Of a DNA stretch of 64,000 nt, positions 46,901-52,544 are shown piece by piece (within the stretch, counting starts at the first letter, position 1; the number at the start of each line of letters is the position of its first letter). Under the pieces are notes generated by a model that searched no databases, was not told where the DNA came from, and saw only the letters and a program-made list of their open reading frames with translations. The translations under genes were made by a program, and so were the position numbers. The DNA is from Solea solea (lineage: Eukaryota; Chordata; Actinopteri; Pleuronectiformes; Soleidae), in contig NC_081154.1 of NCBI RefSeq assembly GCF_958295425.1, positions 11,153,766-11,217,765 of the forward strand, read 5' to 3'.

Positions 46901-49900
46901 ATAAACTACAATGTAAGAATTATGTTAGGAGTCAGATAATAATGACAAAATAACAGATTAAAATGCACGAGTAGATGGTTAAAATAAGTTGTAATGCAAT
47001 TTATATTGTATATGTTTAGTGAAACAAACTAAAAAGGTTTAAATAAATAAGAAAAGGAACAAACATCAAGTCAAGGGCCAGTTTAAAAAGGTGGGTCTCA
47101 AGTTAAACTTTAAATATAGCTATATTTTATGATGAAGGACAAGTTTTATTGCTACTCCATTAATCTTTTATCGTCACTGCTTCGTTCCTTAAATCTTCTC
47201 CAAATCTCCGCAGTACAATTGTTTGAAACCTCACATGACGACATGAATCCTCTAAAAGCCCCCTTATGTCACCTTTTAATGATTTTATTCAAATGTAATA
47301 TTTAAAAGTAGGAAATCAGGGACATCGTTATTGACAATTTAATCACATTTCCTCAAACTTTCTACAGTAAAAAAAATAGCTTGAAACTTGAAATGAAGAC
47401 AGTGTAATGAGGTCAGAAGAAAGTCCAGTGTCGGTTTAAGGACACTATAACCTGCTTATTTGCATGGAGAATTCAGAGTTAGAGGAAAAAACACACGTCA
47501 ATAACATGAAACTACATCAAACTCTCTTTTAATATCCGGAGTTGTCTCTGAAAACTAACATTTCACATGTCCTCCGTCCACCTGCAGGGGTCACGCTGAG
47601 GTCGTGTCAGACGGTGCGTTCGGGGAGGGCGCCGGCCTGATCCTCCTGGACGACGTGCAGTGCGAGGGGTCCGAGACGTCGCTGCTGGACTGTCAGCACG
47701 GGATCTGGGGACGGACCGACTGCTCTCACAGCGAGGACGTCGGCGTTCGCTGCAGGAGTCGATCCGGCCACGAGACCAACGAGGTGCCGGTGATTGCACC
47801 GTCTACAGGTAAGAGCACAATGCCATGAAATCTAGTATTAAAAAGACTGCATCACTTTGAACTGAATTAGTTCTGGTTGTTTTTGTATATTTCTTGTGTA
47901 TTAGACATCCTGTGCTCATAGCAGTTGTTGTGCCAGATGTGTTTTCACTGTCACAAGGGTCTTTCCTTTGTTAGGATGATTTAGTCACTGGGTTAAGAAA
48001 AGGCTTCAGGTTACAGACTACAGATGGATTTAACCTTGAATCATGTGACATATCGTCGTGTTGGTCGTATAGTTTGGAGACATAGCTGATAGTTTGGCTA
48101 CAGTCACACTGCACTGCAGACGATGACATGATTAGTGTTGTTGTGAAAGGTCACACGGTGCCCGCAGAGCACTGCTCTAATGGGAGACTTTGATCTGTTC
48201 ACGTCACTTAGGTAAACTCCGATGCAGAAATGGCATTAGAATACACTATTTACTGTATATGCACTGGAAATATCATTTTAATAATACTATATTTAATAAC
48301 TACTATACTGACAGAAAGTGTGTGACAGTCAGTTTCCACGTGCCCTGTAACCTCACACCAATGTGTTTACTGCCATTTAAAACACTCTGAATAAATATTT
48401 GTCTCATGTTGCTTTTCAACAACAAATGTCCACAGGTCGAGCACAACTTTATTTCATGTCATTATGTGACAATGAAAACTGCAAAAACTCACCTTTAGGA
48501 AGCTGAAAAGAGCAAATGTTTGACATTTTAACGTGGAAAAAAGTCAAAATCCATCCATCTTCAACCGCTTTATCCTCCACATGAGACCTGGTAAAAGCAC
48601 ACTTATTAAAATATGAATTTTAATAGCATTAAAAGAAGATGTTGCCTGTCTGACCTCACGCTGGGTATTTCAGTATGCGGAGGACTGGATTATAAAACGT
48701 CTTCTCCTTTGGTCGTTAATCTGGATTGAGGGACAGTTAGTCCAAGACTTTGGTTAAAGGAACTCCAGCTGTAAAGACAAGATGTAAGAGTTAATGGCTT
48801 AATGAGCAAATTTAATTGGTTAAACGTTATAAACAACAAAGAATGATTCTTTGTGTGAACATCAGGGGCTGCAACTAACGATTATTATCATAATGGATTC
48901 ATCTGTCGATGAATCGAGTACTTTGGTCCATAAGATGTCAGGAAATGTAGGATTTTCTCTGTTATATGGAGCAAAGAAACCAGAAAATATTCACATTTAA
49001 CAATTGTTTTAATGAGTTAAAAGCACTCAAACCGTTTAATCGATTACTAAAATAGTTGACGATGAACTAACAATAAGAAAATATATATATTGTAAACACA
49101 AGTGATAAATGTCTGTCAGTGAAAGAATAGAACCACCTCTGTCTTCTTTTGTGGCTCCGCCGTTTGGCCCTCATTGTGCCTCTGTACGTGTGTCCAGACG
49201 AGTTGAAATGTCACATGTCGACAGCAGAGAGAATAAAGCGTTGTTTACTATGTCGGCGCTCCAGAGGTCCTTCGCCTCCTGTGGACACACCCAGGCCGTT
49301 AGAATGAGAACAGACACCAGGGTGTGGATGACATTTAGAACTGTCAGTGGACATAGACGGGACTGTGTAGACGCACAGACACGAATATAAATGAGATCAA
49401 TTTTCCTCCTCTCAGGTCCCCTGGTGCGTCTTGTGGGAGGCAGGAGAGGAAAGGAGGGTCGAGTGGAGGTGTATCTCCATGGCGACTGGGGGAGTATTTG
49501 CGACTCAGGCTGGAACGACCTGAACGCCGCTGTAGTGTGCAGACAACTCGGACACAGGTTAATGTCCAAGTCCACGAATAAACACAGTCAGGTTTTAAAT
49601 AAGGACAACAGAGATGATTCATATTCCTTCCTCTTGTCAGCGGTGGAGCCGTAGCTGCCGGAGGGTTCGGTCAGGGCAAAGGTCCCATCCACCTGGACCA
49701 GGTGAGGTGTACGGGCAAGGAGGAGTTCCTGGGAGAGTGTCCCACTCTGGGTCAGAGCTTCCAGAGCTGCAGGCGCAGAGAAGACGCGGGTGTGAGGTGT
49801 GACGTCACGCCGCAGGAGTCGCTCCCGACGAAGGCCGAGGCTCAAGAGCCGAGCTGTGGACTGAGGAAGCTAGTGGAGGAGGAGACAAAGAGGAGGAACC

Positions 49901-52544: not shown

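What the first reader, a model, noticed from the sequence alone, without database searches (positions are those of the whole stretch)
49641..52544. Neurotrypsin with an intact catalytic triad but lost activation salt bridge and lost trypsin specificity: a candidate pseudoprotease
The joined frame is intact (2,745 nt), and His633, Asp675 and Ser776 preserve the triad. Yet five key positions are changed: Ile16 to Asn588, Asp194 to Asn775, Asp189 to Asn770, Ser214 to Ala796 and Trp215 to Gly797, and GDSGGP became GNSGGG. Ile16 and Asp194 are partners that form the activating salt bridge, so loss of both looks like coordinated release from protease selection while SRCR and kringle cysteines stay conserved. 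The gene may now act as a binding or decoy protein at synapses or in the matrix, or have a different activation mode.
Basis: partly seen in the sequence, partly recalled or inferred. Interest (0 to 1): 0.85.

Follow-up and report, generated by a model that had tools for sequence, protein, structure and literature searches.

The report
Fish neurotrypsin twin that lost catalysis
In euteleost fishes one of two neurotrypsin genes appears to have lost its protease-activating parts long ago while its binding domains stayed conserved and it gained a histidine-rich tail, so a gene filed as a protease is most likely a non-cutting binding protein.

Summary
Position 16 is Asn, 194 and 189 are Asn, 214 Ala, 215 Gly, GDSGGP is GNSGGG; His57, Asp102 and Ser195 are present. 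It is no private oddity: with 63 homologues (59 named, all euteleosts), Asp194 is found in 0 of 64 rows, Ile/Val16 in 0 (17 of these are alignment gaps; no activation-site R[IV][IV]GG in any), Gly198 in 64, Gly215 in 63, His57 in 24, Ser195 in 49, the full triad in 10. A tree made without the protease domain shows two teleost neurotrypsin paralogues: 'a', canonical, and 'b', canonical-looking in Otocephala, degenerate in eel, inactivated on the euteleost stem. Ten species have both. Binding domains and 42 cysteines are kept; the protease diverged fast and a His-rich tail appeared. Best reading: a conserved serine pseudoprotease whose activation switch went first and triad later, piecemeal; the triad here is a relic. 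PRSS23 is the mechanistic precedent. Catalysis was not assayed; the binding role is inferred. New variant of a known kind.

The parts
30464..30559 (+). exon 1: start codon and signal-like N-terminus (MTRTHRAGRMTLSSREMLCLIGTSLWLPLLAE)
   Evidence: homologues P0007, P0012 and P0016 have a very similar start; start codon choice and signal peptide not proven
   Evidence: DSYLNEVQNS present in homologues
42491..42733 (+). exon 3: kringle domain
   Evidence: Pfam PF00051 E 3e-13
43451..43589 (+). exon 4: first SRCR domain, first part
44111..44289 (+). exon 5: first SRCR domain, second part
44489..44636 (+). exon 6: second SRCR domain, first part
45390..45568 (+). exon 7: second SRCR domain, second part
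45952..46093 (+). exon 8: third SRCR domain, first part
47588..47808 (+). exon 9: third SRCR domain, second part, and linker
49416..49557 (+). exon 10: fourth SRCR domain, first part (lies before the reported interval)
49641..49922 (+). exon 11: end of fourth SRCR and the former activation site TKRR|NQGEGN (Asn at position 16, codon at 49897)
   Evidence: the R-x-[RK]-R cleavage motif is absent in 54 of the 55 readable clade linkers, this one included
50505..50627 (+). exon 12: protease domain with His57 (codon 50614)
50721..50989 (+). exon 13: protease domain with Asp102 (codon 50833)
51979..52544 (+). exon 14: protease domain with Asn189, Asn194, Ser195, Gly198, Ala214, Gly215, Ala226, then the His-rich C-terminal tail and the stop codon
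52269..52544 (+). His-rich C-terminal tail (91 aa, 15 His) and stop; 32 canonical fish rows end 4-9 aa after the same point
   Evidence: start coordinate worked out from 91 codons plus the stop

Best explanation
The gene is 'prss12b' (my label), one of two teleost neurotrypsin paralogues. On the stem of the euteleosts it lost the zymogen cleavage site, the Ile/Val16 N-terminus, its acidic partner Asp194, and active-cleft residues (Pro198, Trp215, Gly226), so the domain can no longer switch to the active form. With catalysis gone the triad was free to drift: His57 and Ser195 were lost in several lineages, and the window's species is one of the minority that still shows all three. The protein is kept as a disulfide-stabilised kringle-SRCR scaffold, probably secreted, carrying a pseudoprotease domain and a new His-rich tail, most likely acting by binding (matrix, glycosaminoglycan or neurotrypsin/agrin partners) and not by cutting. 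Shown: gene anatomy, residue losses, phylogenetic pattern, conservation of cysteines and binding domains. Inferred: absence of activity, secretion, binding role.
For: Residues in the window. Clade-wide loss: Asp194 in 0 of 64 rows, Pro198 in 0, Trp215 in 0; GDSGGP in 0 of 64; no R[IV][IV]GG at the activation site in any of 64 (the single whole-length match, P0024, lies at residue 123 in the first SRCR region); against 64 of 65 canonical rows for each motif. Triad complete in 10 of 64 rows; on the ML tree of 33 clade rows plus 2 outgroups, presence of His57 needs 6 changes and of Ser195 6. Tree without the protease domain: euteleost b clade 100/100, otocephalan b as sister 98/93, the whole b clade with eel 99/94. 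The protease of euteleost b is less like its otocephalan orthologue (0.539) than that orthologue is like its paralogue a (0.731); kringle shows the reverse (0.936 against 0.822). Same-species comparisons: protease identity 0.747 in b against 0.850 in a (lower in 44 of 45), kringle and all four SRCR domains higher on average. Of 42 cysteines, 39 are in every readable clade row and 3 in all but one. PRSS23, with intact triad but no Ile16/Asp194 switch, showed no detectable hydrolase activity (PMC13194640, abstract and passages seen). Full-length reading frames on contigs of only 3.1-5.7 kb (P0029, P0054, P0058, P0062) suggest spliced transcripts.
Against: No activity assay. Asp102 is kept in 62 of 64, Gly193 in 56 and Ser195 in 49 rows, so part of the active site is not drifting freely. 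The window's own species keeps the triad, and some proteases use other activation routes (the PRSS23 paper names tPA and C2a, both with an acidic residue at 194). Both structure predictions were poor (mean pLDDT 38.0 and 34.2) and neither support nor oppose a folded domain. Protein identities are not dN/dS; no relative's DNA was available. High kringle conservation is already present in otocephalan b (0.982), so it is no mark of pseudoprotease function; SRCR4 too is fast on the euteleost b stem (0.637 against 0.695). In five species pairs with no species shared, the protease is less alike in b in only three.
Confidence: 0.86

Rival explanations
1. An active but rewired protease: the triad works through a different activation mode and specificity in the species that keep it.
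For: Triad complete here and in 9 other rows; Gly193 kept in 56 of 64 and Asp102 in 62 of 64.
Against: Asp194, Trp215 and Pro198 each in 0 of 64 rows; the alternative switches described in PMC13194640 still need an acidic residue at 194; other rows of the clade have Trp, Gly, Thr or Ala at 195.
Confidence: 0.07
2. A decaying gene: b is losing function altogether and the protease domain is neutral debris.
For: The protease domain evolves fastest; the goby Eucyclogobius and the pipefish Entelurus have lost further motif residues or most of the His tail.
Against: Open frame in the window and long homologues across euteleosts; 42 cysteines kept; mean identity within the clade kringle 0.962, SRCR2 0.920, protease still 0.768.
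Confidence: 0.05
3. Assembly, annotation or sequencing artefact in the window.
For: None found.
Against: The same losses in 63 other protein records; no alternative exon in the window.
Confidence: 0.01

Closest known systems
Neurotrypsin (PRSS12), canonical teleost 'a' copy
   Same: Kringle, SRCR and trypsin domains in the same order, same cysteines, same family by tree
   Different: 64 of 65 canonical rows keep R[IV][IV]GG and GDSGGP, and canonical rows end 4-9 aa after the protease (32 rows); this gene has neither motif and carries a His-rich tail
PRSS23 (proposed serine pseudoprotease, PMC13194640)
   Same: Triad present but the Ile16-Asp194 activation switch replaced, conserved across orthologues; no activity detected in that study (abstract and passages)
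   Different: PRSS23 has Gln/Ala at 16/194 and keeps its triad across vertebrates; here Asn/Asn in the window with triad loss in most rows, in a kringle-SRCR mosaic, after a duplication whose other copy stays canonical
Hepatocyte growth factor, haptoglobin, azurocidin and other S1 pseudoproteases (recalled, not tested)
   Same: Secreted S1 folds without catalysis, used for binding
   Different: Those lost triad residues; here the activation switch is lost throughout while the triad is lost only in part of the clade

Membership tests
Neurotrypsin / PRSS12 family (by descent) | kringle + four SRCR + C-terminal S1 domain in this order | tested here: met
   Pfam; exon map
Neurotrypsin / PRSS12 family (by descent) | groups with neurotrypsins in a tree | tested here: met
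   on kringle and SRCR columns only; no tetrapod sequence was in the tree
Active neurotrypsin (agrin-cleaving protease) | basic activation site followed by Ile/Val16-Ile/Val-Gly-Gly | tested here: not met
   TKRR|NQGE
Active neurotrypsin (agrin-cleaving protease) | Asp194 in GDSGGP, Ser214-Trp215-Gly216 | tested here: not met
   GNSGGG, AGG
Active neurotrypsin (agrin-cleaving protease) | His57, Asp102, Ser195 | tested here: met
   but the full triad is present in only 10 of 64 clade rows
Active neurotrypsin (agrin-cleaving protease) | cleaves agrin | not testable with these tools
   needs an assay
S1 serine pseudoprotease, PRSS23-like type | Ile16-Asp194 switch lost at both ends across orthologues | tested here: met
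   0 of 64 rows with Asp194; 0 of 64 with Ile/Val at 16 (17 gaps), no activation-site R[IV][IV]GG in any row
S1 serine pseudoprotease, PRSS23-like type | no serine hydrolase activity | not testable with these tools
   needs an activity-probe or peptide assay
S1 serine pseudoprotease, PRSS23-like type | fold retained | tested here: inconclusive
   protease cysteines kept and Pfam Trypsin E 2.5e-36, but structure predictions were low confidence

The most novel reading that the evidence does not exclude
Euteleost prss12b has become a dedicated non-catalytic partner of the canonical copy: it binds the same agrin/proteoglycan surfaces through its kringle and SRCR domains and competes with or positions the canonical neurotrypsin, while the newly gained His-rich tail gives a metal- or pH-sensitive tether. 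Inactivation of one duplicate and gain of the tail, both on the euteleost stem, would then have turned a protease pair into an enzyme-plus-regulator pair, with otocephalan fishes, where both copies look active, as the natural before-state.
Probability: 0.2. Interest if true: 0.8.

Novelty: new variant of a known kind. Interest (0 to 1): 0.62.

Why it matters
Gene catalogues list these proteins as neurotrypsin in many fishes (names), so the name predicts an activity that the sequence argues against. The pair is a natural experiment: the same gene canonical-looking in Otocephala, degenerate in eel, inactivated in euteleosts, with the canonical paralogue kept in ten species seen here. It lets one ask which non-proteolytic functions of neurotrypsin's kringle and SRCR domains matter at synapses or in matrix, and it shows a pseudoprotease route in which the activation switch goes before the triad, so annotation by the triad alone overcounts active enzymes.

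Tried and rejected
Alternative exons restoring IIGG or GDSGG: none on the gene's strand in the window (tblastn with three canonical neurotrypsins and motif scan; a scan for [IV][IV]GG alone, added because the first pattern could not see a motif split from WPW by an intron). Orthology to the canonical fish neurotrypsin: rejected by the tree. Kringle conservation as a signature of the new role: dropped, because otocephalan b is as conserved and some 'a' models look mispredicted in the kringle (Lota P0190, Pundamilia P0208). Structure prediction of one divergent and one canonical Caranx protein: too poor to use, so no fold search was run. A search of the window's own genome for serine protease domains did not complete four times, so whether this species also has the canonical copy is untested. 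NDST neighbour as a synteny check: the recalled string KTGTT was not found in six frames; weak evidence only. Literature, in the held open library only: no paper holds 'neurotrypsin' with 'pseudoprotease', 'ch73-127m5.1' or 'prss12b'. Further searches gave listings of 20 of 28, 4 of 4, 10 of 10, 8 of 1,805 and 8 of 9 papers; I saw no title or abstract start about this paralogue, but did not open most of them. Opened by passages only: PMC4359090, PMC6966886, PMC13194640.

Rows left out of counts: of 89 hits, P0064-P0089 (26) were set aside as other S1 proteins or fragments, among them P0079, an Oryzias SRCR-only record. The 63 kept include several entries of one species (for example Cynoglossus three times, Scophthalmus twice), so they are rows, not species, and some are poor gene models. 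At position 16 the alignment has a gap in 17 of 64 rows. The 33-row table uses 32 of the 63 plus the window; the main tree used 46 of the 67 rows of that alignment; the clade tree 35. The canonical 65 were picked by hand, both lists capped at 120 rows, as rows with SRCR plus trypsin domains; they include the degenerate eel P0147. The sturgeon P0093, whose record has no trypsin domain, was outgroup only. In one search one SRCR2 comparison fell below the overlap limit (44 of 45 used). The linker pattern failed on 9 of 64 and 9 of 65 rows. The R[IV][IV]GG count looked only at the last 330 residues, too short for long-tailed rows; one search repeated it on whole sequences. A quick triad pattern passed 59 of 65 canonical rows: eel fails because of GDSAG; the other five (P0186, P0187, P0190, P0193, P0222) show His, Asp and Ser in the alignment.

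Full report
What is there. The reported interval is the 3' part of a 14-exon gene on the + strand, 30464-52544. Joined, it reads 2,772 nt, 923 aa and one terminal stop, with AG/GT at every internal splice edge. Pfam gives kringle, SRCR (four stretches) and Trypsin (E 2.5e-36; residues 593-816 of my first, 910-aa model, profile positions 10-220 of 220, so without the N-terminal activation strand).

The residues. By alignment to solved S1 proteases and to canonical neurotrypsins, position 16 is Asn597, His57 is His642, Asp102 is Asp684, 189 is Asn779, 194 is Asn784, Ser195 is Ser785, 214 is Ala805, 215 is Gly806 and 226 is Ala817; 198 is Gly. The chymotrypsin numbers are assigned by motif and recalled numbering. 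No exon on the gene's strand in the window could restore the lost motifs.

Relatives. A search with the protease region returned 63 homologues of this kind at 49-84% identity; 59 carry a name, all of euteleost fishes, mostly as neurotrypsin, neurotrypsin-like or Si:ch73-127m5.1, and 4 are unnamed. Counting the window and all 63: at 16 Asn 20, gap 17, Ser 16, Lys 5, Thr 3, Glu, Gly and Ala 1 each, Ile/Val none; 194 Asn 55, Ser 4, Gly 4, Thr 1, Asp none; 198 Gly 64; 215 Gly 63, Arg 1; 214 Ala 56, Ser 5; 226 Ala 52, Ser 10, Gly 1; 189 Asp 42, Asn 8; 57 His 24, Ser 21, Thr 8, Tyr 6, Phe 3; 102 Asp 62; 195 Ser 49, Thr 8, Trp 4, Ala 2, Gly 1; all three triad residues in 10. The salmonid and pike rows have Trp at 195, smelt Gly, burbot and salamanderfish Thr. 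By contrast 64 of 65 canonical rows have R[IV][IV]GG and 64 of 65 GDSGGP, eel P0147 being the exception to both as a pair of motifs; the furin-like R-x-[RK]-R motif is in 55 of 56 readable canonical linkers and 1 of 55 divergent ones. On whole sequences R[IV][IV]GG occurs in one of the 64, P0024, at residue 123 in the SRCR part and not at the activation site.

Phylogeny. On kringle and SRCR columns only, 46 rows, rooted on sturgeon P0093, the tree has a canonical clade 'a' from otocephalan and euteleost fishes (89/88, not starred), and a 'b' clade (99/94) of eel, then otocephalan rows with intact motifs, then the euteleost divergent rows including the window (100/100, stem 0.24). The two bonytongues fall outside both (89/87 for excluding them), so whether the duplication is the teleost whole-genome duplication is not settled. 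Ten species have both copies among the retrieved proteins: Scophthalmus, Amphiprion, Pundamilia, Myripristis, Lampris, Lota, Lepidogalaxias, Osmerus, Eucyclogobius and Caranx (names; pairs listed). The eel row has lost the activation site (NSAGK), Asp189, Gly196 and Trp215 while keeping Asp194 and the triad, so b seems to have been dismantled twice.

Order of loss. On a tree of 33 clade rows and 2 outgroups, presence of His57 needs 6 changes and of Ser195 6 (resolution within the clade is poor), whereas the activation switch is gone from every row. The simplest order is switch first, triad later; the triad in the window is then a relic. Regain of His57 in some lineages cannot be excluded.

Constraint. 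Across 45 same-species comparisons among 10 species, mean identity in b against a is kringle 0.961/0.688, SRCR1 0.873/0.791, SRCR2 0.922/0.784 (44 comparisons), SRCR3 0.826/0.728, SRCR4 0.861/0.831, protease 0.747/0.850, the last lower in b in 44 of 45. These comparisons share species and are not independent. In five pairs with no species in common (tree paths may still overlap) the protease is lower in b in three, equal in one and higher by 0.01 in one. Kringle figures for a are depressed by models that look mispredicted. The cleaner contrast: euteleost b against otocephalan b is 0.539 in the protease, below otocephalan b against its paralogue a (0.731), while kringle is 0.936 against 0.822; SRCR4 also falls, 0.637 against 0.695. 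Of the 42 cysteines from the kringle on, 39 are in every readable clade row and 3 in all but one. So the binding part is held; the protease changed sharply on the stem but keeps 0.768 mean identity within the clade, which reads as a maintained domain and not debris.

The tail. After WIDEV the window has 91 further residues with 15 His. Tails of 41-163 aa occur in 32 of 33 divergent rows (the exception, P0040, has 12 aa), and 28 of 33 have at least 9 His; 32 canonical rows end 4-9 aa after the same point and one, P0205, stops short of it. Blocks such as TNEI.EIK.KHTHAHHSHT and a terminal NTQILV recur in several percomorph rows, so it is coding and not merely a CA repeat, although CA-repeat growth is a plausible origin (inference). 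In Eucyclogobius and Entelurus the His residues are nearly gone (1 and 2).

Expression. Four unnamed rows lie on contigs of 3,097-5,730 bases yet encode 873-959 aa from a signal-like start to the tail. In the window the same gene spans 22 kb, so these look like spliced transcripts; the tool does not explain the source tag.

Mechanism and precedent. [quoted passage not shown] The present protein fails at the same switch and has further changes at 198, 215 and 226. Passages of PMC6966886 give agrin as neurotrypsin's only known substrate and say that heparan/chondroitin sulfate modulates its cleavage; a binding or competing role of b there is conjecture.

Verdict. Observation confirmed, interpretation supported and extended: a conserved euteleost pseudoprotease paralogue of neurotrypsin. 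Not shown: lack of activity, secretion, ligand, tissue, and presence of the canonical copy in this species.

Noticed in passing
window 1-5309 and 5407-22964: A 38-bp satellite array (about 140 and 461 copies, 84 and 88% matches) fills the first third of the window.
   Followed up: partly
window 38530-40200, - strand: A single-exon TRIM-type frame (RING, B-box, TRIM coiled coil, PRY/SPRY; 556 aa) lies antisense in the intron between exon 2 and the kringle exon of the neurotrypsin gene.
   Followed up: partly
protein P0147 (Anguilla rostrata): Eel 'b' neurotrypsin has lost the activation site, Asp189 and Trp215 while keeping the triad and Asp194: a second, apparently independent dismantling.
   Followed up: partly
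proteins P0054, P0057, P0058, P0059, P0061, P0062, P0063: None of these seven rows (several named as gobies) has the G[NDST]SGGG block; they seem to have gone further than the rest of the clade.
   Followed up: no
protein P0200: A canonical neurotrypsin of Sarotherodon galilaeus is labelled receptor-type tyrosine-protein phosphatase F in its source record.
   Followed up: no
proteins P0001, P0004, P0190, P0208: Public gene models of the two paralogues look incomplete or mispredicted at the first exons, kringle or an SRCR domain.
   Followed up: no
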